A stretch of DNA of 64,000 nt from Ilyonectria destructans (Eukaryota; Ascomycota; Sordariomycetes; Hypocreales; Nectriaceae): the NCBI GenBank assembly GCA_020740775.1, contig JAHEWK010000010.1, positions 2,542,001 to 2,606,000 on the forward strand. Direction: 5' to 3'. Below are positions 4,678-62,520 of this stretch, in pieces (within the stretch, counting starts at the first letter, position 1; every line of letters starts with the position of its first letter). Both the position numbers and the translations under genes were made by a program. The notes beneath the pieces are model-generated. The model did not search any database. It saw nothing but the letters and a program-made list of their open reading frames with translations, and had not been told where the DNA came from.

Positions 4678-5602
4678 TCCGAAGAGAGTTGGTCGTTTTC
4701 TTTGAGAATAAAAAGAGACGAAGGAACTGAAGTTATCTATTAATCAGATGAGGCTGCTGATGGAGGCCTTATTGTTACTGACCCGCATTTGTTAGTGCTG
4801 ATGCCTAAATGAACTGGTACACTACACCAAATTCTCAGGTCGATTGCTTCAGCACCGGAATGAACCTAACCACGAGGTTTGCGGTATGCAGCGCCGGATA
4901 CCGCCCGGTTGCCTTCCTCTCCGTTCCCTGCTTTTACTGCCGCCGCATCGCGACAAAAAGGTTGGTATTCCGTTGCGTGCACCGCGCTGCTTCCTCTTCC
5001 GCCGGCCGTATTGCTATTGTGTCTGTGGTGCAGGCGCGATCCCTTAACCCAACTTAACTCAAGCTTATCGACGGGTTCTTTTATTTAGGGTTATATAATA
5101 TATAGCTTATACGCCTCTTACTTCTGGCCCTGAGTTTATATTAATTGCTATTTGGCTTTTTGCTTGCCCTTGTGAGCTCTATTTTTCTGTGCAAGAAAGC
5201 AAGCTCACCTCCCTCTCGTCTGATTAGCAAAGCCCACCCAAGTACCCAAGTTTAGTTAGGGTACCTACTTAAGTAAGTAAAGAGTGTAGCATTTTTGGCC
5301 AGATCTAGAACCATTTCCTAATTCTGGGAACACGAAGTGAGGCGCCGCCACAATCAACTAGACAGCGACACATGTCCAATAGCTGGACTGCAATTCCATG
5401 CTAGCCCGACACGCTTCAGCTGGCTGAACAAACCCCGCCTGTTGCCTAAAATACCTCCGTAATATAACGGAGTATATCATTTGCGAAATCGCTCTCACTT
5501 CCATCATTTTCCTTGGAGAATATGCACTTCAGGGGATCGAATAGACAAGGCATCACATCCACCAGGACACAACCTCGTTTCCAAGACTGACGTGATTACG
5601 CC
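4678..5602. promoter_or_regulatory. Shared divergent promoter region of HET and NACHT-ankyrin genes
   Basis: This 925-nt interval separates two divergently transcribed recognition genes and must hold both promoters. An AT-rich TATATAATATATAG tract lies near 5092-5106. Short overlapping frames at 4809-5088 have no recognisable product. No specific operator could be identified by eye. Confidence 0.45.
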
Positions 5603-33562: not shown

Positions 33563-34128
33563 ATGGACAAGTTCGACTGCGTCGTCGTTGGCGCGGGTGA
33601 GTAACGCCAATGCTGATCCCTATGCCGCTGGCCTAGTATCCTTTACGTCTAGGTAGCTGGATAGGGCGAATCGAGTGGCTCCTATAGAGTATAGTATGGG
33701 ATGTTAATTTGGACCTCTCTGTTAGGATGGTACGGCTTAGCTGCTGTAAAGCAGTATTACTGCACTTGCCCAGAGGACTCTCTGGTGGTCTTTGAATTAG
33801 AAGCTATGCTTGGTGGTATATGGGCAGACTATTGCCTGTACCCAGGCCTTAAGAGCAATAACCTCCTGGGAACCTATAAATACCCTAACTTCCCTATGGA
33901 TAGCGCCACGTTCAATATTAAGCTGGGCGAGTATATTCCCGGCGGGGTTATTAATGTCTATCTTAAGGCCTATGCAGCTAAGTTTGGGATTAACGACTTG
34001 GTTTGTGTTGAGATAAAAGTACTTGTGGCTGAGTATTAGGATATAGCTGAGGGTGGATGGGTGTTGATGGTTGCCGGCTCTAAGAAAGAGGAAACTAAAG
34101 TCTGTGCGCGCCGGCTTATTATTGCGAC

Positions 34129-34133
34129 CAGCC
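34129..34133. other. Left target-site duplication of TRIM-like element (CAGCC)
   Basis: CAGCC here is repeated immediately after the second LTR at 35155-35159. It is a 5-bp duplication typical of LTR retrotransposon integration. Confidence 0.85.
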
Positions 34134-34327
34134 TGATACGTGAAATCACGTGAGGATCATCAGTCACGTGAGCAATGCCTCAAAAGGGCCTGCAGGGCCC
34201 TTTTGACTTTGCTTCTTCATCATTCTTCTTCATACAACAATACAATCCATCACCTGCTATTGCAGCTCTCTGGCCCTTCGTGCCCCCTAGGGCCTCTGGC
34301 CCTTGGCCATCGCCTCTTTTCGTATCA
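34134..34327 (+). repeat. 5' LTR of TRIM-like element
   Basis: This 194-bp repeat is identical to 34961-35154. It contains two CACGTG boxes at 34150-34171, a near-perfect palindrome AAAAGGGCCTGCAGGGCCC followed by TTTT near 34187-34209, and GGCC-rich inverted pieces near the end. Its terminal heptamers TGATACG and CGTATCA are reverse complements. Confidence 0.88.
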
Positions 34328-34329
34328 AA

Positions 34330-34347
34330 TGGTAGCAATTATACTGC
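34330..34347 (+). other. Putative primer-binding site
   Basis: TGGTAGCAATTATACTGC starts two bases after the 5' LTR. Primer sites normally begin TGG, complementary to the CCA tail of a tRNA. The first seven bases would also match an initiator-tRNA-Met type site; beyond that the tRNA is unknown. Confidence 0.45.
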
Positions 34348-34366
34348 TGCATCTTGGTCACCAGCT

Positions 34367-34690
34367 TTGACAGCACCAGCTTTGACAGCACCAGCTTCGA
34401 CAGCACCCGCTTCAGTCGCCCATGGCTTTGCGATACCAGCTTTGATGGCACCAGCCTCTGTGCACCAGCTTCTTCAAGCATCGCCTATCTTAGCCGACTC
34501 GCCTTAGTTGCGCTCCTGACACCGGCCCGTCAGCACCAGCTCTCCCGAGCACCAGCCCGTCTCAGCACCAGCTCTCTTCTGAGCACCAGCCCGTCTCAGC
34601 ACCAGCTCTCCCGAGCACCAGCTCTCTTAAGCACCGGCTCTCTCTCGAACACCGGCTCTCTCTTGAGCACCCAGCCCTCGCGGCACCACA
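34367..34690 (+). repeat. Degenerate tandem repeats inside the TRIM-like element
   Basis: The first array has units like CACCAGCTTTGACAG; the second (about 34520-34690) has units like GAGCACCAGCTCTC and GTCTCAGCACCAGCTCTC. Many units share CACCAGCT. It is read as noncoding; the short frames crossing it extend into the LTR and are unlikely to be genes. Confidence 0.7.
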
Positions 34691-34960
34691 GCCCTCGCGG
34701 CACTCTTTGGATCCCGTTGGTTCAACTCCTTTGGATACCGGCGATCCCCCTCAAAGCTGTCCCCTTCGCTGGGCCTGAATAGCAACACCAAGCAGCCGAC
34801 CGACCGGCCGACCGACCAATGCAGACAAGATCGTCTTACGGTATGAGAGGCATATTTCTCGCGGATGGATTTGGCAAGGAACTTTGGAAGGAAATGGATC
34901 TAGGCTCTATCCTTGTCTTGCCTACTGAGGACAGTAGAGTCTCTTTTTGTGTGCGGCATA

Positions 34961-35154
34961 TGATACGTGAAATCACGTGAGGATCATCAGTCACGTGAGC
35001 AATGCCTCAAAAGGGCCTGCAGGGCCCTTTTGACTTTGCTTCTTCATCATTCTTCTTCATACAACAATACAATCCATCACCTGCTATTGCAGCTCTCTGG
35101 CCCTTCGTGCCCCCTAGGGCCTCTGGCCCTTGGCCATCGCCTCTTTTCGTATCA
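34961..35154 (+). repeat. 3' LTR of TRIM-like element
   Basis: Identical in sequence and length to the 5' LTR, starting TGATACG and ending CGTATCA, and followed by the CAGCC target duplication at 35155-35159. Identity of the pair implies a young insertion, since LTRs are equal at integration. Confidence 0.88.
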
Positions 35155-36659
35155 CAGCCTGACTTTTGAGGCTTTCCTTCTGCACTTTGATGGCTAAGAG
35201 GTGTTTGGCGGTAAGATATTCTACGGTAAGTATTTTTTGCAGAATAAGGATATGATATAAGTGGGTAAGTCTGTGATAGTGTTTGGTGGGATAAAGTTCG
35301 CCTGGGATGCAGTCTATGTATATATTACGGCTGGTGTTAAGGTTAACTGGGTAATCCGGTGTATATTTATGTCTTGGTGTTTGTGCTTAATTACTTGTTA
35401 AAACTGACGCGAGAAACTAGCATCTGGATATGGTCCCTGTTGGATGGTACCGGCGTATGTGATGCTGCTTAAGAAATGGCTCGAGAAGCTGGCGAGTATG
35501 TGCTGCTTAGTCTCCCCTCCCCGCTCCAGCTTCTAATAGGGCCGAGCAGATATTTGGTTCCTCACTTGGTTCAGCCCTTGTATATGGGGTGGGGTTGACG
35601 GCTATGGAGGTATTTACAGCTTCTTATACAGTACTGCTGTGGGCCGAGCAATTGTGAACGGCTTCTGGAGCATTCTTGACGGCGATGTTGTGGCCCTTAA
35701 TAAGTATGACTCGCACCCCAATACGGCCAAGCTGAAGCCTTGGATTGAGGTTATGTTCGCGGGCACCAGCTTCAGCATCCTCAACTATAATACCGACTTC
35801 CTCGAGCTTGTTAAGGGTGATATGGTTAACATCCATATTGGCGAGATCGACCACCTCAGCCCAGGAAAGGTCCACCTATCAGACAGCACTGAGTTTAAAT
35901 CGGACGCTCTTCTTGCCAATACCGGCTGGAAATATATACCGCCTATGAAGTTTCTACCTGAAGGAATCGAGAAGGAGCTTGGTCTGCCATACGTACCAGA
36001 GGAGGGAGCGCCAGAAGAGGACCTTACGAATCAGCATCCGCTCATTAAGAAGGCCGACCACGAGATTATGCAGTGCTTCCTATGCCTTAAGTATCAGCCT
36101 ATCTGGAACAAGAATTACGTTTCCCTGACTGACCAGAAAGGTATTAGCAGTAGTGACGACGTGATGCTATATAAGTCTCTCACTCTGTATATGCTCTATC
36201 ATTTCCTAGTGCCGCCGTCTGAGCGCCTCCTTCGGACTCGCGACATCGCTTTCATCGGTATGGTTAGCAACTTCAGCAATATTATCACCGCCTACCTCCA
36301 GGGCCTCTGGATCAGCGCCTACTTCTTGGGTCGACTCGTAAAGGATCCCGCTGCTGCCGTTGGTGATGAGGTGTCGATGTCGAAGCTGCGATACGAGACG
36401 GTGCTATATAACTGCTTCGGCAAGTGGCACTATCCTATTAACTGGGGCAATAGGAACTCTAGTTTTATCTTTGACGCAGTTCTGTATCTTGACCTGCTGC
36501 AGCGTGACCTTGGACTGGAGCCTCACCGTAAAGGCGGCTTCTGGTCCGAGATTTGGGATCTGTATGGACCTGAGGATTACTGGGGAATTAATGAAGATTG
36601 GAAGGCTAAGTACGGCAGCGATAAGCCGATCGACTAAGGTGTACTTCCCTCTTGTCTTA

Positions 36660-49700: not shown

Positions 49701-50580
49701 GAGTATCTTCTAATATCTATCTACCTATCTTCTTCTTATCTTCTACTTGCTACTAATTCAGACTTAAAATAGCTCTTTAAGATATTACTGAATAGTTATC
49801 TATATACAGTCTGGCAGTATAGATAAGATTTAAAGTCTTACCCAATAGAGAGATTAATCTATCTATCTTTAACCTACTTATTAAGGTAGCCTTTAATATT
49901 AGTACTTTCTATTACAGCTAGACCTATAAGTTACTTAATAAATATATATTTATTATTATATAGAAGGCACTAAATATATATATAAAGTTTAAAGAATTAC
50001 TGTAGTATAAGAAGTTAATAGCTAATATAAAAGCTGCCTTCTCTTTTAATATTACTACTATAGAATTAGAAATATAAATACTGTTATTTTTAAGAAGGAT
50101 ATTTTAGCTTAAGTTTAAGCTTAATACTGAGGTTATATTAGTATACCTACTAATCTTATTATTACTGGAGATTCAGTATACTATCCCTTAATTATATACC
50201 TCTACTATAACTTTTAAATAATATTTTTAAAGAAGTATATCTATATAAAACTGTCTAACTTTATATAGATATAGGGGCTTCTATAGGTTTAAAATAAAGA
50301 GTAAATTTTAAGAGCAGTTTAAAATAATTTATAGAATAATAAGAAGAGTAAGTAGGGTTTTAAAATAATAAAGAAAAAATATAAAGTTAGAATACTACTT
50401 ACTATAGATATTTTTAAGTAGAATTTAAAAAATCTTAAGGTTATTAGATTTAATTTATATTATATTAATTTCTAGCAGTATAAAAAGATCCCTTATAATA
50501 TATAAAGGAAATATACCTCTAAAAGAGTTACTCTTTTTATTTAAAGTATCTATAATTATATTATATAAAGTCTACTTAAC

Positions 50581-50850
50581 TATTACAGCTTAAGTTAAAA
50601 TTAGGCAGTTATAATTAGTAGAATTATAATATACCTACTTTTTTATATAATATTAAGAATTTAAACTTATTCTATATAAATAAGCTAGAATATCTAACTT
50701 ACTTATCTATAATAAGCTATAAAATTAAACTTACTTTTATTTAGTAAGCCTATTAAAATAACTATAGTATATAAGTATACTTATTTAGTATTTTTATAGA
50801 GATAGTCTTACTAGCTATTAATATAACTTAGTTATCTAGCTTATTATACT
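50581..50850 (+). repeat. LTR-like repeat copy 1 (pair with 51754)
   Basis: It begins TATTACAGCTTAAGTTAAAA, matching TGTTACAGCTTAGGTTGGAA at 51754 apart from transitions. The similarity continues patchily for about 250 nt (for example TATATAAGTATA, CTTATTTAG, TTTTATAGA, TAGCTATTAATAT). Boundaries are approximate. Confidence 0.5.
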
Positions 50851-51753
50851 AGCTAAATATTACTAGATATAATATTCTTACTTTATTATTTTACTTCTAT
50901 TTATAGTAACTATACTATAACTTATATATAATATTTTAATTTCTATTAGAACTTAAATTTCTATAATTTATACCTATTCTATACTAATAGTTTAGAATAA
51001 GTATAGCTATTATATTAACTATTAAATTCTATAAACTCTTAAATTTATATAAATCTCTCTATTATAGAAGCTTAAATATTAAGCTGGTAAATATATATAT
51101 AGTATTTCTTCTTTTTAACTTATATATCAGTATAAAAAGAGTAAATAACTTTAGGTTTATTTAAACTGCTTAAAAGTAATTTACTTTTTAGTTAGCTTAG
51201 CTATATTTTTTCAGATAATTTTACTTAGTTAATTTATACTCTTATTATTAGTTAATCTATATTATATTATATTTAATATATTTTATACTTATATATAGTA
51301 TCTAAAGTATACTTATTTAATAGAGTAAAATAAAATATCTTATAAAATAAAATAAAGCCTTTAGGCTGAAGTTTCTTAATAAAAAGATTCTTTTTAATTA
51401 TAATAGAAATAATATTAAGGCTTTTATATTAGCTCTTATTAATTTAGTTCTTAATATAGAATATAATAATATTAAGCTGGAAATTAGTATTAGTATTAAT
51501 AAGGTTATTATTTTAAAAGAAGTAATCTTTAGTAATATAAAAAAGAGTAATAGTAGAATAAAAAAAGAAGAATAAAAAACAAAAAAGAAAAATAAATTAT
51601 AGAATAAAAATAAGAAGAATCTATTAAAAATAAAAATAAGAGAAATTTATTAAGAATAAAATACAATCTAATAAAATACTATTAGTAGGTAGATTTATAT
51701 AGTAGAATTAATATCTAAATATATTAAATTTTAATATTTAAATTAATAATAGA

Positions 51754-52010
51754 TGTTACAGCTTAGGTTGGAACTAAGCAGTTATAACCAGCAGAACTAT
51801 AATATACCCACTTTTTCTATCTAACTATATATAGAGTATTATACTAAGGATTATACTTATAATTCTAAATTATTACAATTTAAGAATTACTGCAATCTAA
51901 CACCTTATATAATCTATAAATTACTACCTAGTATATAAGTATATTTATTTAGCACTTTTATAGAAATAGCCTTACCAGCTATTAATATACTTAGTTATAT
52001 TAAATTTACT
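51754..52010 (+). repeat. LTR-like repeat copy 2 (pair with 50581)
   Basis: It begins TGTTACAGCTTAGGTTGGAA, less mutated than copy 1. It lies in direct orientation 1.17 kb downstream of copy 1. It could be the second LTR of a small or deleted element, or an independent insertion. Confidence 0.5.
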
Positions 52011-53561
52011 ATTCTACTATTACCAGACTGTAATCTATATTACTTACTATAACATCTTAATCTACTAGATTATATACCTTACGCCTAAATTTACTCTATA
52101 CCCTTAGGTTAGACTTAACTGTTATAATAGAGGTAAAAAGATAAAGTAAAATAGTAGAAAGTTAAAATAGTAATATATAAAAATAAAAGAAGGTTAAAAT
52201 AATAAAGAGAAATAATATTTAAAGTTTAAATATTAATAGTAAAAAGTATTAAAGTTATTAAGAATCTACTTATAGATATACCTTAAGGGCTATAAAGAGT
52301 AAAAAGAAAGCTATTCTATACTATAGAAATTATTTAATCTATTAAATAGCTATTTAAACTAAAAGCTATTATAGATTAAATTTTAAGCTTAAATTCTAAC
52401 TTTATTAAAATCCAGCTAATTAAAAAGTAGAGTAATTTATTAATAAAGTAATAATAAAGCTTTAACTTTACCTATATTTTTATTTATTTTATTTTAGTAA
52501 CTATATTACTATTTAGCAGTAAGAAAAAAAGCTTACTTTCTTTTTTTTCTTTTTTTCTTTTTTTTCTTTTTAACTTTAAATAGATAATTCTATAGTAACA
52601 GCCTATTAAATAAACTTCTATTTAGCTTTTTATAATAAATTTATACTAACTTTATAGAAAGTTTACTTAAAATATATAAGAAATTTAGCTAGAGGCTTTA
52701 AGTTTTACTATAGCTTTTATAGCTATTACTCTATTTTCTTTATCTTATTAAAGTTATCAAAAAGTTATATAAGGGATTTTATTAAGGTAATTAGATTCTA
52801 TTTATATTTTTATTTAATATACTATATATAAGCTAATATAGAAAATTAAATCTCTAAATTTAGTAAACTATATATATAATAGAATTAAATACTTATACTA
52901 CTAATTGCTGTTATTATTATTATTATTATATTATTACTATTATAAAATATTTATTAGAGATATCTATAGAATTCTTTAAAGGTAAGATAATATATTAAGC
53001 TGATATTAATAGTAAAAAAAACTTAAGTATAATAATTTAAAGCTAAAGCTATAGATACTACTAGCTTCTAGCTTAAGCTTATAATTTTAAATTATAATTC
53101 TTCTTTTTTTTTTATTTAATAATTAGGTAGCTCTATTTAATCTATTATTTTAAGCTTAATATTTATTAGTAGATTTTTAGCATAAGAGTTAATATATCTA
53201 TATTTATTAACTAACTTAAAATTCTTTAGTATTTCTATTTCTATCTATTAGTATTTAAAACCTCTAAAAATTAAAATTTATATAATAGAAATAACTATAA
53301 ATAGAAAAACCTTATAGAAACTTATAAAGGGAAAAATTACTATAGTTAGTATCTATTAATTAGAGCTATTAAATTAAAATTCTAATATCTATAAGTAGCT
53401 TAATTTTATAACCTCTTATAGATTTAAATTATTAAAGACTGTAAATATATAACTTTATAACTATTTTACAGTTTAAGCTTTAAGCTTTAAGCTTTAAAAT
53501 ATAGCTTATAAATTCTAATAAAAATCTTATAATTATATACTAAAATACAGTATATTATTAA

Positions 53562-54117
53562 TGTTAAAGATTATAAGGCAGTAAAATAAGATAATATTAT
53601 TATAAAAGAAATATCCTAATAAAGAATATAAGGTTAAGGGGTATATAAAGATAAAAGGTAGATAGTATAAAATAGTATAAGATAGTGTATTAATAGTATA
53701 TAATATAGTGATACTTCTATAAAAATAAGTCTGGAATTACCCAGGGGGTCTTAGCTTTTTTATAGATAATTTACTTAAAGTCCAGCTATTATATTAAGGC
53801 AATATATATACTATTGGAAAGCTTAAAGTTCCAGCTTTATTATAGTACTGTATCTATCCTTATAGGTACTTTTCTTATTAAGTAATATTGATTTTAAATA
53901 GTGTATACTTTAAAATTAACTGATTTTAAAGTGCGGATAGATTAATAAGCTAATTCAGGCTGATTAGTTATACAGTATGAATATCAGTAATAATACTGTA
54001 TTTTAGTATCTTCTTATAAGAATTTTTATAGGATTTTTAAGCTATATTTTAAAGCTTAAAGCTTAAAGCTTAATTTTATAAAGAAGTTATAAAGTTATAT
54101 ATTTATAGACTTTAACA
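53562..54117 (+). repeat. LTR-like repeat, copy A (556 bp)
   Basis: It starts TGTTAAAGATTATAAGGCAG and ends ACTTTAACA, so it has TG...CA termini with a short inverted match (TGTTAAAG/CTTTAACA). It contains a relatively GC-rich core, GGAATTACCCAGGGGGTCTT. Copies C and D are in the same orientation and a partial inverted copy B is adjacent. Confidence 0.75.
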
Positions 54118-54131
54118 ATTAATATATACAC

Positions 54132-54543
54132 TATATAACTAATCAGCCTGAATTAGCTTATTAATCTATCCGCGCTTTAAAATTAATTAATTTTAAAGTA
54201 TATACTATTTAGAATCAATATTACTCAATAAGGAAAGTACTTATAAGGATAAATATAATACTATAAGAAAGCTGGAATTTAGGGCTTTCTAATAGTATAT
54301 ATATTGTCTTAATATAACAGCTGGACTTTAAGTAAATTGTCTATAAAAAGGCTGAGACCCCCTGGGTAATTCTAAACTTAATATATATCACTATTAATAT
54401 ATTATATACTATTAATATACTATCTTATACTATCTTATACTATTTACCTTTTATCTATATATATCTCTTAACTTTATATTCTTTATTAGGATATTTCTTT
54501 TATAATTATATTACTTTATTCCACTGCCTTATAACCTCTAATA
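54132..54543 (-). repeat. LTR-like repeat, copy B (partial, inverted)
   Basis: The reverse complement of this segment matches the first ~410 nt of copy A (for example AAGGCAGTGGAATAAAG, then the CCCAGGGGGTCT core, then GCGCGGATAGATTAATAAGC). The terminal ~140 nt are missing. With copy A it forms a long imperfect palindrome. Confidence 0.7.
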
Positions 54544-56904
54544 TAAATTAACAGCTAAAGTCTATAGATTAAAATATCTAAAATCTAAAGGTTATAATAG
54601 CCTAAATTTAAAAGCTAAAATAGATATTAAAATATAGTAGCTTTATATATCTAAATATTAAGATATAAAGATTAAAGTAGCTTAAGCCTAAAGGCCTAAA
54701 TAGATATTAAGAGGTAATATTACAGGCTAAATTTAAAGGAAAAGCCTAAATATAAGCTTAAGCTAAAAGTATTATAACTTAAAAGTATTACTAATAAGTA
54801 GAGTTTTTACTATAACCTCTTAATAAAATCTTCTCTTTTTTTTTTCTTTTTACTTTTAAATACTTTTAAATATAAGAATTCTATTATTAGATAAATTTAA
54901 AACTTACTTTTTATATTATTTAAAGCTTAACTATTTTATATTATTCTTATAGTAAGTAGGCAGTAATAAAAAATCTATTTATAGAATCTACTAATTAAGC
55001 TATTTAGCTATAGTAGGTAATTTATAAAGCTATCTATAACTAAATTATATTACTGTAGAATTAATTAGCTTAATTAGATATACTATATTCTACTTTTAAT
55101 ATTATAGTAATTATATTAAATAACTTTAATACCTCTATTAAAAATATACTATTAGTTATATAGAAGCTGCTACTTTTAGAGCTTATAGCCTCTAATAGAA
55201 GAAAGCTACTTTTAAATCTATTTAAATTTTTAGGTATCTATAGTAACTATATAATATAGATATAGTAAATATAAGATAAAATCCGAATTAATAGCTTTAT
55301 TATTAATAGTAATAAGTATATATAGTACCTTATTAATATCTACTTATTAATTAAGCGCTAATATATTATAGCTACTTTTTACTACTTTAAAAGCCTATAG
55401 AAACTTTATAACTTTAAGTAATTTATAATCTATTTTAATTATAACTATAAAAATGAAAATATCTAATAATAAGCTATAAAGTTACTATAGAAGCTATAGT
55501 AGAGTAATAATATCTTATTTTCTATCTTTCTTTCAGTTTTTAAATAGTAAATCTTTAAAGCTAATAATACTAACTAAAATAATAATATAAAAATAACCTT
55601 TCTTAAGGGAGTATTTAAATTATAGCTATAATATAATTTAATTACTATAGATCTTCCTACTAACTTCTTTTTCTAGCTAAATAAAATATAAGAAGTTACC
55701 TAAAGAGTAGAGAATCTTAAGGTAAAATTAAATTAACCTTACTATAGATATAATTAATTTAAGAAATAGAATTAGAAGGAGATATATTAATAACTAATAT
55801 TAATTAAATTTAAAGTATTCTAAAGAAAGCCTAAAGGAATATAGTAAAAATACTATACTAAATAGAGTAATACTATTATTATATATATACCTCTTTAAAC
55901 TATATAGCTTAAAACTACTTAAATTGCTATATTAACTTTTAAGTTATAATTACTAAAGTTACTTTCTATAGTAAGAAAACTATAGAAAAATAGATTAATA
56001 GCAGTAAGAGCTTATTTAATAAAAAGTTAGAAAATAAATAGCTTTAAGATAAAATTAGATTCTAAAGTTTTATAAGATACTATAAAAAGAATAAATAAAA
56101 TAAAATAAGTAAATAGTTAGTAAATTTACTATAATAGAGATTTAAGTTAATAATATCTAAATTTAAGCTTTTATTAATAGCAGCTATAATATCTATATTC
56201 TAATTAATACTATTTATACCTAAAAATTATACCTTCTATTTATAGAAATTAAATTATAATATTTTAATAGCTTTACTAAAGTAACTATATTTATTACTAT
56301 TAGTAAAATAATAGTAATAAATCTTAAGATTAAAGATTATAAATAAACTGCTTTTACCTATATTATATAAAATCTAAAGAAAGAATTCTTCTTAAGGAAA
56401 CTTTAAATAGAATAAAATAATATAAGCTATTTTACTAAAAGAAAGTAGATATACTATAGAGCTACTAACTTAATCTTATAGATAGATAGTAAGAAGAAAT
56501 TAATTTAAATCTAGAAGATTTATACTATTTAGCTAGTTATAAAATCAGTAATAGTAGGATTCTACTAGTAGCTTTACTATAGGTATTTTTATAGAGATAG
56601 TAAAATAATTCTTATAGAATATATCAGTCTAGCTAATATTAACTGAGCTCTTTATAAAAAATCCCTATTAACTTAAGCTTATATATACTTATTAATATCC
56701 TTTAGAACTTTAAAAAACTATTTTTAGCAGTAAAAATTAAAAAGCTCTCTCTCTATTAACTAAATATTAACTATAAAGTAAACTTATAATAAGATCTTAA
56801 AAGGGATAAATCCCTTTTACCTTAGGGACTTTTTTATAGTATATTTTAAGAGGAATTACTAATTCTATAGAAGATTCTTATTAAACTGCTTAATAAAAGG
56901 TATA

Positions 56905-57640
56905 TATAAGCTAGTAGCTTAATTATAGCAGCCTTTATTTTATTTATTAAGAAATTAAAAGGCAGTTTTTACTTCTACTATAATTACTACACTCTTAATA
57001 TAATTATATAGTAAGACTGCTACTTTTTTTTACTTATTATTAAGACTTTTTATAACTTTATAGAGACCTATTAATTTATTAAATTAAATATAGTTACTAT
57101 CTTCTATAAGATTTAAATAGCCTTTAGCTATAAGATTAAAACTGCTTTCTATATCTATTTTAGCTTTTTTAAATAGCTTATATATCTATTTAGACTTAAT
57201 AGTACTCCTACTATATTCCAGTATTATATTAACTATATATTATAGAGGAAACTTAATAACTTTATTATAGTATACCTTAATAATATACTAATTTACTTCT
57301 TAGGGATCTTAAATAACTATATAAAAAAGGTTTAATAAGTATTTAGCACTCTTATAGCAGTGGTATTAAATTTAAATCTTAAAAAGTATAAATTTATAAT
57401 AAAAAAAGTTAAATACCTTAGATTTATTATTATAGTAGGAAAGATTATTTTTTATAACTTAAATAAATAGTAAGCTAGCTAAAAGTAATAGGTATCTATA
57501 ATAATAATAAAAATATAAAGCTTTTTAGAATTTACTAGTTATTACTGGGTTTTTATATTGAATTTCTTTAAGGTTATAATATCTTTAATTAATCTTATAA
57601 AAAAGAATATTCTTTAATTTTAAAGTTAGTATAAAAAAGC
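56905..57640 (+). pseudogene. Ty3/gypsy reverse transcriptase relic
   Basis: Despite many stops the plus-strand frame is readable as a gypsy polymerase: IIAAFILFIKKLKGSFYF (for the APxLFVKKxxGxxRF block), FIKLNIVTIFYKI (KLD block), STPTIFQYYINYIL (APATFQRYIN block), VYLNNILIYF (YLDDILIF block), NLKKYKFIIKKVKYLRFII (KCEF...KYLGFII block). The catalytic Asp residues of the KLD and YLDD motifs all read Asn, and Trp/Gln positions read as stops. These are RIP-type changes. It lies between LTR-like copies A and C, whose spacing would suit a 6.9-kb element. Function is lost. Confidence 0.82.
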
Positions 57641-59958
57641 AGCCTTTTAAACGCTATATTAATACTTCTATAAGATACTAGCTTTAATTTAATAGAACTC
57701 TAACTAAAAGATCTTTTTAAAGTCTAACTTCTCTAGCTATACTCTTAATAAAGCCCTCTTATAAAAGAATTTATAGAGTATTTACTGCTCAGTTATATTC
57801 TACTTATAGTAACTAAGTAAATATAAGTATAACTATTTAATTTATAACTAAAAGATACTTATAATTATAAACTGCTTAAAGAAATAAAGAGTAAAGCTAT
57901 ATAGCTATAAGTTTTTTATAGTAATTATAGACTATAAGAATCTAATTTACTTTATAAAAAAGTAGTAACTTTCTAAATAATAAAGCTATTAGGCTAAAAA
58001 CTTATAGCTTTATAATTTTACTCTATAATATTAATTTAATAGAGAGAATATTATAGCTAATATACTTAGTTACTATAAATAGAATATACTACTGAAATTA
58101 GATAACTACTATAAATAAAAATATTATATCTAATTAATTCCTAATATAATAATTCTATAGAAGGCTTTTATTTATATTATAGCTATTATAGTATAGCTAA
58201 CTGTAATATTTCCCTTATATTTTAACTTTTAAGTACTTTAAGAAGAAATTATTAGTTAAAATAAAATCTATTAATTTACTCTTATTATAGTTATTTAAAA
58301 AGGCTATTACTTCCCCCTAAAGCTTAAGCTATAAGTAAATATTATAGAATATTAAATAAGCTTTTAAAATAGCTAATCTATAGAAAGTAACTTTAAGTCC
58401 CTAGGGGTTATAATTTAAAGAATTCTTAAAAGGTTATTAAAAACTAGCTGTATATTTATATTATCTAACTAAAGTATAACTCTATTATATTAAATTACTC
58501 TAGCTGAATTAGTATAACTGTAGTTATAAACTGATATTAATTTTAATCTAGCTACTTATAGCTAATTTATATTTTTATTACTAATTATAACTATTATAGA
58601 AGGAACTATATCTAAAGAAAGAGAAAAAGAAAATCCTTAAATTCCTATTAATTCTATTATAATTCTATTATAATCTTACTATAAACTTTATTATTAATTT
58701 ACTTCTAATTAATACCAGTAGATTTTATTACCTTTAAGTTATTATTAACTAACTAACTTATATAATAACCTTAAAAAAGATAGCTACTATAAATACTAAA
58801 GTATATATATAGCAATTTATTAATTACTACTGCTAATTCTATAGAATATCCAGCTTAATTATAAGTAATAAAGAAAGTAATTAAATTAGCTAATTTTAAT
58901 AGGCTTTTTATAAGCTAGCTAAAGTTAAATAGTAACTTAATACTGCCTACTACCTTTAAATAAATAGTAGGCCTAAAAGATATAATTAGAAAATTTAAGT
59001 TTATCTTTAAGTTTATATTATCTACTTCTAAAAGAATTAAAGTTACTATTTACCTATAGTATAGCTAGTACTTAATAATAGAGAATACTTATTAACTAAA
59101 TTAAGCTTTTTCTTTATTAAATATAGCTACTATATTTATATCTTAAAATAGAAGAGATTAAAACTTACTTACTAGTAATAAGTAGTAAGAAAGTAACTTT
59201 TTAGCTAGTTAAAAAGCTTTAAGATATCTATAAATTTATTTAAGCTACTTTAATAGTAGTATAATAATATTAAAAAGATAATATAAATAAGAAGTAATAT
59301 CTTACTAAAAAGCTTTAAATTAAAAATAAAATATAAATAGACTTTAAAAACTTTAAGACTTTAAAGCTTTTAATAAAGCTTAACTAGCTATATTAGAAAT
59401 ATTAAATTATTAAGATTATTAGCTTATATATAGTAGAACTAAATATCCTTAATATAATCTATCTATAATTCTATATTAATTTATTAAAAAGAGTATAAAA
59501 AAACTCTCTCTCCAGCTAGAAATAGAATAATATATAACTCTTATTTATTTATATAAAAAATAGCAATAAATTTAAAATTAAAGAAATTCTCTATATCTAT
59601 TAGAAGCAGTAAGAGTATAGTATATTCTATAAGGCTTTAATATATTAATATAGATATAAAAACCTAATTTAAAAGCTAATTAATAGTATATAGAATCTAA
59701 AAGTACTAAATAAATATAAATACTGCTACAGTTTAATTAATATAGCAGATAGACCTTATAGTAAATATAATATCTTAAAAAAAAGAATTATAAAAATTAC
59801 TAGCCTATAAGTTTTTATAGAGAATATATAGTAAGAGAATAATAACTTATTAATTTAGCTTTAGCTTAAAAATATAGATATACTAACTATATAAAAATCT
59901 ATAAATTAAAATAAAAATACAGAAAGAATACAGTAGAAATATAAAGAGGGTATAAAGT

Positions 59959-60511
59959 TATTAGAGGTTATAAGGCAGTAAAGTAAAGTAATATAATTAT
60001 AAAAGAAATATCCTAATAAAGGATATATAGTTAAGAGGTATATATAGATAAAAGGTAAATAGTATAAGATAGTATAAGATAGTATATTAATAGTGTATAA
60101 TATAGTAATACTAATATATTATAAGTCTGGAATTACCCAGGGGGTCTTAGCCTTTTTATAGACAATTTACTTAAAATCTAGCTATTATATTAGAACAATA
60201 GGTATACTATTAAAAAGCCCTAAATTCCAGCTTTCTTATAGTATTATATTTATCCTTATACGTATTTTCCTTATTGAGTAATATTGATTTCAAATAGTGT
60301 ATACTTTAAAATTAATTGATTTTAAAGCGCGGATAGATTAATAAGCCGATTCGGGCTGATTAGTTATACAGTATAAATATCGATAATATGCTGTATTTTA
60401 GTATATAATTATAAGATTTTTATTAGAATTTATAAGCTAATTTTTAAAGCTTAAAGCTTAAAGCTTAAACTGTAAAGTAATTATAAAGTTATATATTTAC
60501 AGTCTTTAACA
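59959..60511 (+). repeat. LTR-like repeat, copy C (553 bp)
   Basis: It starts TATTAGAGGTTATAAGGCAG, ends GTCTTTAACA, and contains the GGAATTACCCAGGGGGTCTT core unmutated. The purine-rich AAAGAGGGTATAAAG just before it could be a polypurine tract, making this the 3' LTR of the gypsy relic that starts with copy A. Confidence 0.75.
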
Positions 60512-60921
60512 CTATTTAAAGATAAAGCTATAATAACTATAATAACTATAATATATTATAATAAAAAGAATAAAAAGAGTTAAAATTAAAATCTAAATAA
60601 ATAACTTAATTAATTAAAAAATAATAAACTTTTTAGCTAATAATATTTAATTAAATAGATTTTTAAGAAGTTTTAAAAAAAATAAACTAAAAAACTATTA
60701 ATTAAAAAAGATATTATATTAATAATACTTATTTATTCTACTAGATTTTATATAAGATTTTTTAATTTATAGCTTTAATAGGTTAAGCTATTAATACCTA
60801 CTTAATATAGTATTTTCTATTAAAGAAAGCTATTAATTTTAACTTTAATTATAATAAGAATTTAATTAAATAACTTAATTTCCTAAAAAACTGAAAAATT
60901 CTAACTTAATAGTATTAATAA

Positions 60922-61476
60922 TATTAGAGGTTATAAGGCAGTAAAATAAAATAATATTATTATAAAAGAAATATTCTAATAAAGAATATAAGGTTAAGAA
61001 GTATATAAAAATAAAAGGTAAATAGTATAAAATAGTATAAAATAGTATATTAATAGTATATAATATTATAATACTAATATATAATAAGTTTAAAATTACT
61101 AAAGGGGTTTTAGCCTTTTTATAGATAATTTACTTAAAATCCAGCTATTATATTAAAATAATATATATACTATTAAAAAGCTTAAAATTCCAGCTTTCTT
61201 ATAGTATTATATCTATTTTTATAGATACTTTTCTAATTAAGTAATATTAATTTTAAATAGTAGATACTTTAAAATTAATTAATTTTAAAGTATAAATAGA
61301 TTAATAAGCTGATTTAAGTTGATTAATTATATAGTATTAATATTGTTATTAATACCGTATTTTAATATATAATTATAAGACTTTTATTAGAATTTTCAAG
61401 CTATATTCTTAAGCTTAAAGCTTAAAGTTTAATTTTATAAAAAAGTTATAAAGTTATATATTTATAGACTTTAATA
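60922..61476 (+). repeat. LTR-like repeat, copy D (555 bp)
   Basis: It starts TATTAGAGGTTATAAGGCAG and ends GACTTTAATA. It is the most decayed copy: the core reads AAAATTACTAAAGGGGTTTT, differing from copy C mainly by G-to-A and C-to-T. It is likely a solo LTR or the end of a second element. Confidence 0.72.
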
Positions 61477-62520
61477 AATAATATAAAATCTCTCTTAAGA
61501 AAAAAAAGAAACTAAGGAAATTTAAGATTAAAATAGTTATTATCTTTAATTTTTATACTCTATTAAGTATTATCCCTTAGGTTAAATATACTATTTACTA
61601 TTTAATAATTAATTATTCTTATTTTACTTTTTAATAATTTATAATAGAGAGTATAAAAATTATACTTACTGAGTATTACTAAAGTTATAATATTATATAA
61701 TCTAAATTTAAAGTAGGAGTATATTCTTTAGGTACTCTTACTTTTATAAATAGCTATTTAATATTAGTAGCTTTTTCTTTTTAAGTATAAACTGCTTTTT
61801 TCTGAACTTTATTACTAAATAGTATAGAAATCTCTATATAGAAGGTCTTTTTACTCTTAATATTATTACCTTCTATAATATTCTTAATATTAAGTTCTAT
61901 TTTTCTATTAAAAAGTTTATTAATTTCCTTTAGTAATTACTTACTTATCTCTATCTAAAAGAAGATTATAAAAATAAGCTTTAAAATATTAAATAAGATA
62001 TTAATAATATATATCTTCCAGCTGATATATTTAAGAGTAATAAATATAATAAAAATAGTAAAAACCCTTTATAGCTATATTAATAATAACAATATTAAAT
62101 AAAAAAATAAGTATACCTTAAGGGATATATATAATAATTGAGTATATATAGAAATTAATATTAATCTTACTATAGTAAATATAAATATATAAATAGCTAT
62201 ACTATTTATATAGAGTGAGAAACTTAATACTTCTAGCAGATATATAATAATTAATATAGTTTATTTAAAGCTAAAACTACCTATTACCTATATTAATATT
62301 GGATATTTCTTCTTATTTATATATCTCACTTTATTATTTAATAGTATAAAAAGAATAATTTGCATACTTCTAAAGTTACTATTAAGAGCTATATAGATAT
62401 CTAAGGATATAACTATTACTATTATTTATAAAAAACTTAAGGACTAATAATAAGAAAGATATAAAGCTATTAAATAACTTACTATTAAACTTAAGGACTA
62501 TAAGGCAGTCTACTAAAGTA

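What the first reader, a model, noticed from the sequence alone, without database searches (positions are those of the whole stretch)
34134..35154. Miniature LTR retroelement (TRIM-like) with identical LTRs, target duplication and no coding capacity
Two identical 194-bp repeats with inverted TGATACG/CGTATCA ends, flanked by CAGCC on both sides, enclose 633 nt of noncoding tandem-repeat sequence; a TGG-starting primer-site candidate lies 2 nt inside. This is the structure of a TRIM, a class described mainly in plants and only sparsely in fungi. It must be mobilised in trans by an unknown autonomous element. LTR identity means a very recent event in a region otherwise scarred by RIP.
Basis: partly seen in the sequence, partly recalled or inferred. 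Interest (0 to 1): 0.82.

Follow-up and report, generated by a model that had tools for sequence, protein, structure and literature searches.

The report
Miniature retrotransposon dependent on a chromovirus
A 1-kb DNA parasite with no recognisable genes of its own has recently copied itself around a fungal genome, and the short end signals it shares with a large intact retrotransposon suggest whose machinery it borrows.

Summary
Positions 34134-35154 hold two identical 194-bp LTRs with TGATACG/CGTATCA ends and CAGCC on both sides. The same 71.7-Mb genome, probably Ilyonectria destructans, has seven 1,021-bp copies, 100% identical, each with its own 5-bp duplication; two copies interrupted by a DNA transposon; and eight solo LTRs. 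A RIP-mutated relative of the insertion site is empty, with one CAGCC. The primer site matches 15 nt of initiator tRNA-Met including CCA; its 14-mer occurs 20 times, reversed control 0. A Ty3/Gypsy chromovirus with a 2,119-aa ORF and identical 176-bp LTRs shares only LTR ends, primer site and a short block before the 3' LTR. It is the best helper candidate. Best reading: a new TRIM-type family, mobilised in trans by chromoviruses (inferred). The kind is known. No canonical polypurine tract was seen. Two side observations may matter more: all seven initiator tRNA-Met genes found carry GT-AG introns, and DUF6589 may be the transposase of a helicase-bearing DNA transposon.

The parts
34129..34133 (+). 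target-site duplication CAGCC, left copy
   Evidence: single CAGCC in the empty paralogous site at C10:341712-341911
34134..34327 (+). 5' LTR, 194 bp, TGATACG...CGTATCA
34330..34344 (+). primer-binding site TGGTAGCAATTATAC, complementary to the 3' 15 nt (with CCA) of initiator tRNA-Met
34359..34412 (+). tandem repeat, 15-nt unit, 3.6 copies
34516..34703 (+). tandem repeats, about 16-nt unit (GCACCAGCTCTC-like); overlapping rows of the finder
34819..34980 (+). 53-aa ORF running into the 3' LTR; no Pfam match, no significant similarity to the two chromovirus loci
34924..34960 (+). 3' internal block ACTGAGGACAGT...ATA, partly shared with the chromoviruses at the same distance from the 3' LTR; stands where a polypurine tract would be
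34952..34959 (+). TGCGGCAT: the site where the copies on C16 and C32 carry a 5,205-bp DUF6589 DNA transposon (uninterrupted in the window)
34961..35154 (+). 3' LTR, identical to the 5' LTR
35155..35159 (+). target-site duplication CAGCC, right copy

Best explanation
A short non-autonomous LTR retrotransposon of TRIM type. Shown: identical LTRs, 5-bp target duplications, dispersed identical copies, solo LTRs, an empty related site, a primer site matching initiator tRNA-Met, and short terminal modules shared with resident Ty3/Gypsy elements. Inferred: it is transcribed from its LTR, packaged in chromovirus particles, reverse-transcribed by chromovirus RT primed by initiator tRNA-Met, and integrated by chromovirus integrase, which would recognise the TGATACG/CGTATCA ends. 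LTR interiors and the element's interior do not match the chromovirus detectably, so recognition would rest on the end modules plus an unidentified packaging signal.
For: Seven 1,021-bp copies at 100% identity, each with its own TSD; two passenger-interrupted copies (C16, C32), also with TSDs; eight solo LTRs, seven of them with TSDs: 16 of 17 insertions found. Empty paralogous site with one CAGCC. PBS 14-mer: 20 exact hits against 0 in the reversed control; 9 are this family, 1 is the C26 element, 8 share the flanking sequence of a second family, 2 are unassigned. The C26 element (L052:776-8010, minus) has identical 176-bp LTRs, TSD CACTG, and one 2,119-aa ORF whose pieces match RVT_1, RT_RNaseH, RT_RNaseH_2, Integrase_H2C2, SH3_Tf2-1 and Chromo above cut-off (rve below it); its RT piece matches Ty3-G Gag-Pol (7q5b_A) at E 6.7e-21. 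The 3' block: anchored at the LTR, the best 12-nt window matches 11 of 12 (C26) and 12 of 12 (family 2), reached by 0 of 2000 shuffles each.
Against: No canonical polypurine run precedes the 3' LTR, here or in either chromovirus. Without anchoring, the 3' block is not significant: local score 19 against a shuffled maximum of 30, blastn E 0.028. Outside the end modules no significant similarity to the two chromovirus loci was found (best other row E 0.015), so the helper assignment rests on 25 nt at U5/PBS, 11 bases at the LTR start and the 3' block. No expression or mobilisation data exist. No other fungal genome was available.
Confidence: 0.88

Rival explanations
1. The 6.2-kb copy on C16 is the autonomous parent and the small element is its internal deletion product.
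For: Its first 826 nt and last 203 nt are 100% identical to the small element, with an 8-nt overlap at the junction.
Against: Its extra 5,205 bp is a TIR-bounded DNA transposon encoding DUF6589 and a RecQ-like helicase; no RT or integrase domain matched in the six ORFs scanned. The same unit sits outside the small element on C24, with 9-bp duplication CCCAGTCCT, and on C9. The 8-nt overlap fits the target duplication of that insertion.
Confidence: 0.03
2. A DNA transposon with long terminal direct repeats, the solo 194-bp units being MITE-like copies bounded by 7-bp inverted ends.
For: Each LTR has 7-bp inverted ends; solo units keep 5-bp duplications; no canonical polypurine tract.
Against: A primer site next to the 5' LTR, complementary to 15 nt of initiator tRNA-Met including CCA, at the same place as in a Ty3/Gypsy element that encodes RT and integrase. 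A DNA transposon has no use for it.
Confidence: 0.04
3. Mobilised by another LTR family (family 2, represented at C23:40000-48200, or one not examined) and not by the C26 family.
For: Family 2 has the same 14-nt primer site, a 3' block with 12 of 12 matches in the best window (C26: 11 of 12), and a 2,175-codon open frame related to the C26 ORF by tblastx.
Against: In the first ten LTR bases family 2 differs at two positions and the C26 LTR at none; its LTR-to-primer spacing is 3 nt, not 2. The two families are related, so either or both could serve.
Confidence: 0.2
4. Assembly artefact or simple duplication of 194 bp.
For: None found.
Against: Seven copies on seven contigs with distinct flanks and distinct 5-bp duplications, and an empty paralogous site.
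Confidence: 0.01

Closest known systems
TRIM elements of plants (Witte et al. 2001; recalled, and as cited in PMC4646964, passages)
   Same: short LTRs, PBS, 5-bp target duplications, no coding domains, presumed dependence on an autonomous LTR element
   Different: fungal host; from recall, interior (633 nt) and total (1,021 bp) are longer than typical; no canonical polypurine tract
Helenus, TRIMs with tRNA-like LTRs in rust fungi (PMC10886601, passages)
   Same: fungal, 5-bp duplications, no coding capacity, length range 311-1263 bp
   Different: no Rfam family, tRNA and 5S included, matched this element at E up to 1
Ty3/Gypsy chromoviruses (C26 element here; Tf1/MAGGY-type relatives recalled)
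   Same: LTR ends, primer site and 3' block
   Different: the small element has no gag-pol, and its LTR interior does not match by sequence
Predicted TRIMs in Venturia (PMC4646964) and Boletales (PMC5689174), passages
   Same: TRIM-class calls in fungal genomes
   Different: class labels in the passages I saw; no primer tRNA or named helper was given in those passages

Membership tests
TRIM | two direct LTRs with TG...CA ends | tested here: met
TRIM | target-site duplications differing between copies | tested here: met
   9 of 9 two-LTR copies, 5 bp each
TRIM | primer-binding site complementary to a tRNA 3' end | tested here: met
   15 nt with initiator tRNA-Met, 3 of the 7 genes found
TRIM | polypurine tract before the 3' LTR | tested here: inconclusive
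   no canonical purine run; a block partly shared with both chromovirus families lies there
TRIM | no protein for mobilisation | tested here: met
   longest of 11 ORFs is 142 aa; 3 of 11 scanned, no Pfam match above cut-off
TRIM | length under 1000 bp | tested here: inconclusive
   1,021 bp; the source that gives 1000 bp also lists Helenus TRIMs up to 1263 bp (passages)
TRIM | mobilised in trans by an autonomous LTR element | not testable with these tools
   a candidate helper exists; no mobilisation data
Helenus/Cassandra-type (Pol III) TRIM | small-RNA-derived sequence in the LTR | tested here: not met
   no Rfam match at E up to 1 in 34100-35200
Ty3/Gypsy chromovirus (C26 partner) | RT-RNase H upstream of integrase, with chromodomain | tested here: met
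   (rve itself below cut-off); RT piece matches Ty3-G

The most novel reading that the evidence does not exclude
The element is reduced to a near-minimal recognition code for a chromovirus. Only the first 11 LTR bases, 25 nt across U5 and the tRNA-Met primer site, and a partly conserved block of about 40 nt at the 3' LTR junction match the C26 chromovirus; a second family matches the same modules with a few differences. What RT and integrase recognise would then lie in those modules, while promoter and leader were replaced. This speaks to how a TRIM keeps its dependence on a helper, which one author states is not known (PMC10886601, passage).
Probability: 0.5. Interest if true: 0.55.

Novelty: new member of a known kind. 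Interest (0 to 1): 0.45.

Why it matters
TRIMs have been described mainly from plants, and the helper is often uncertain. Here one ascomycete genome holds a young burst, solo LTRs, the primer tRNA genes, and larger relatives with open frames that share only short end modules. That turns the cis-requirements of trans-mobilisation into a concrete hypothesis. Seven identical copies of about 1 kb without RIP-type change, two of them in strongly AT-rich flanks, also raise the question of how the burst escaped RIP.

Tried and rejected
I first read the 6.2-kb C16 copy as the autonomous parent (note) and dropped this when its extra DNA proved to be a TIR-bounded DUF6589 transposon. Pol III-type LTR: no Rfam match. 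The 53-aa ORF as a remnant of chromovirus coding sequence: no Pfam match, and same-strand blastn/tblastx of the whole element against the two chromovirus loci gave, beyond the end modules, only weak rows (best E 0.015). Unanchored alignment of the interior to the C26 3' tail was not above shuffles (19 against 30), while to the C26 leader it was (32 against 28, the primer-site match). ARAGORN found no tRNA at the matched site in any of 8 loci; with anticodon introns allowed it gave inconsistent identities; Rfam found tRNAs only elsewhere in 1 of 5 loci. Removing the GT-AG introns in a script gave tRNA-Met(cat) for 7 of 7. L051 (C25) was fetched as a second chromovirus copy, but the whole loci share only LTR and adjacent leader with L052 (two blastn rows, 279 and 177 nt), so no RIP conclusion was drawn from it. 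L053 (C10) gave no match. Foldseek gave no match at E up to 0.001 for the DUF6589 model. Paper searches, listings only unless stated; passages seen in PMC4522978, PMC4646964, PMC8450103, PMC10886601 and PMC5689174. 'DUF6589' occurred in 0 papers of that library.

Full report
What is there. The window holds, at 34134-35154, two identical 194-bp direct repeats, ends TGATACG and CGTATCA, flanked by CAGCC on both sides. The interior is 633 nt. Tandem repeats cover 34359-34412 and about 34516-34703, not all of it. Of 11 ORFs of 40 aa or more overlapping the element the longest is 142 aa; 3 of the 11 were scanned against Pfam without a match above cut-off.

Copies. The genome (71,667,988 bases, 74 contigs; window = C2:2542001-2606000) gave 26 LTR matches (the tool says such counts are lower bounds). 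I read them as seven complete copies (14 LTRs), one interrupted copy on C16 (2), the 3' LTR of an interrupted copy on C32 (1), seven whole solo LTRs (7), and one solo LTR split by 481 nt on C30 (2). The seven complete copies (C74, C28, C23, C22, C9, C7, C2) are identical over 1,021 nt (interior). Their duplications are AGTAT, CGGGC, AAGTC, AGAAG, AAGAT, TCTGT and CAGCC; C16 has CTATG and C32 AGGCA. Of the eight solo LTRs seven keep a 5-bp duplication; the most diverged (C32:158371, 89%) does not. One search has one more row without a duplication, L021; it is the 3' LTR of the C32 copy, whose outer flanks do match. Seven identical copies give a 95% upper bound of about 4.2e-4 substitutions per site under a star tree. 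At the fungal rate of 1.05e-9 per site per year quoted in PMC5689174 (passage) that is at most about 0.4 million years.

Empty site. The joined flanks match C10:341712-341911 over their whole length (85%). The 300-nt alignment shows one CAGCC and no element. Of 54 differences, 49 have G or C in the window and A or T on C10 by transition, 28 of them in RIP contexts (27 TpG to TpA, 1 CpA to TpA); 5 are reverse transitions. So the C10 relative, not the window flank, is the RIP-mutated one.

Primer. A pattern for a tRNA T-arm plus the acceptor strand complementary to the primer site gave 13 hits with one mismatch (reversed control 6); 7 of the 13 have the T-loop ATCGAAA, from recall the mark of initiator tRNA-Met. 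The seven genes were found again by their anticodon arm (7 hits, control 0). Three of seven end in GTATAATTGCTA, which with CCA pairs with 15 nt of the window's primer site; the other four end in GTGCAATTGCTA and pair with 11. The 14-mer TGGTAGCAATTATA occurs 20 times, reversed control 0: 9 in this family, 1 in the C26 element, 8 after the same upstream sequence as the second family, 2 at places whose LTRs I did not check. Of the eight, only the C23 locus was examined in full.

Candidate helper. The C26 element spans L052:776-8010 on the minus strand, with 176-bp LTRs identical to each other and CACTG on both sides, and a single 2,119-aa ORF. In five pieces it matches RVT_1, RT_RNaseH, RT_RNaseH_2, Integrase_H2C2, SH3_Tf2-1, Chromo and a zinc finger (zf-met) above their cut-offs, and rve below it. 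Its LTR shares with the small element's the first 11 bases and, at the end, TTCGYATCA followed by AATGGTAGCAATTATA. The second family, related to it by tblastx (up to 80% over 555 residues; not scanned against Pfam), matches 8 of the first 10 bases. The block before the 3' LTR aligns in the three families around ACTGAGGRCAGT and ATA|TGATRCGTG. By itself it is too short to be significant in an unanchored comparison (score 19 against a shuffled maximum of 30; E 0.028). Anchored at the LTR boundary it is: 11 of 12 and 12 of 12 in the best window, reached by 0 of 2000 shuffles each. A genome-wide pattern made from these sequences gave 13 hits, control 0: 7 this family (by construction), 2 the fetched chromoviruses (by construction), 3 lying 2.3 to 7.2 kb downstream of a family-2 primer site on the same strand (C8, C11, C12; not fetched there), 1 not followed (C26:241420). 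At least 40 LTR copies of the C26 type exist (40 scored of 60 candidates). Beyond these modules nothing significant is shared, which speaks against simple recent descent by deletion from this helper.

The two long copies. On C16 and C32 a 5,205-bp DNA transposon sits at the same place near the 3' end of the small element. The two inserts are identical at 5,205 of 5,205 positions, while the surroundings differ from the young copies on C32 (4 of 194 in the 3' LTR; 3 substitutions, a 16-nt and a 1-nt insertion in the interior) but not on C16. The duplication reads GTGCGGCAT (9) on C32 and TGCGGCAT (8) on C16. The C32 copy has a C26-type 5' LTR and a small-element 3' LTR with a matching AGGCA duplication. 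Recombination among the families, in reverse transcription or by gene conversion, seems the likeliest cause; I cannot separate the two, nor exclude two independent insertions.

RIP. The seven complete copies differ nowhere. Among the six diverged LTRs compared (L018-L023) there are 22 substitutions, of which 1 is CpA to TpA and none TpG to TpA (counted from its listing). Two complete copies (C74, C9) sit in flanks of 13-21% GC. Escape through small size or youth is an inference.

Classification. Features of TRIMs were tested one by one (membership table). The polypurine tract and the length limit are inconclusive; the other testable ones are met. I therefore call it TRIM-type, a new family of a known kind. 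The TRIM class has been reported in fungi (PMC10886601, PMC4646964, PMC5689174, passages; PMC12210899 and PMC10067951, listing only). I saw no description of this family in the listings, but the paper tools cannot search by sequence.

Host. Protein P0001, 100% identical to the DUF6589 ORF query, is recorded from Ilyonectria destructans on a contig of 298,608 bases, the length of contig C31 here. The species is an inference from this.

Noticed in passing
L059-L065 (C1, C3, C12, C74): All 7 of 7 initiator tRNA-Met genes found carry a GT-AG intron of 53-56 nt between positions 26 and 27 (GTATGT/GTAAGT, CTAAC/CTAAT), and 4 of 7 a second one of 53-60 nt in the variable region; removing them gives a 72-nt tRNA-Met(cat) in 7 of 7. 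They look spliceosomal, which would be very unusual for tRNA genes (from recall); the listings showed no description. A looser anticodon-arm pattern gave 48 hits (control 42): these 7 genes and 41 not examined, so an intron-free gene is not excluded.
   Followed up: partly
[not shown]
   Followed up: partly
L050:984-7217 (C32:242483-248716): Element with a chromovirus-type 5' LTR and a small-element 3' LTR but a matching AGGCA duplication: probably a recombinant between families.
   Followed up: partly
C11:1106732-1109068: Family-2 primer site and 3' block only 2.3 kb apart: perhaps an internally deleted copy.
   Followed up: no
C6:2324564 and C74:1021265 (L078, L085): Two further primer-site matches of 16 nt after a different upstream sequence, perhaps a third LTR family using the same tRNA.
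   Followed up: no
C9:974968 and C31:114116 (L055, L056): Ends of DUF6589 transposon copies on two contigs share CTATCATCC, which may point to a rearrangement between transposon copies.
   Followed up: no
window 50001-62000: Very AT-rich stretch, 17-19% GC, as expected of RIP-degraded repeats; RIP indices were not computed there.
   Followed up: no
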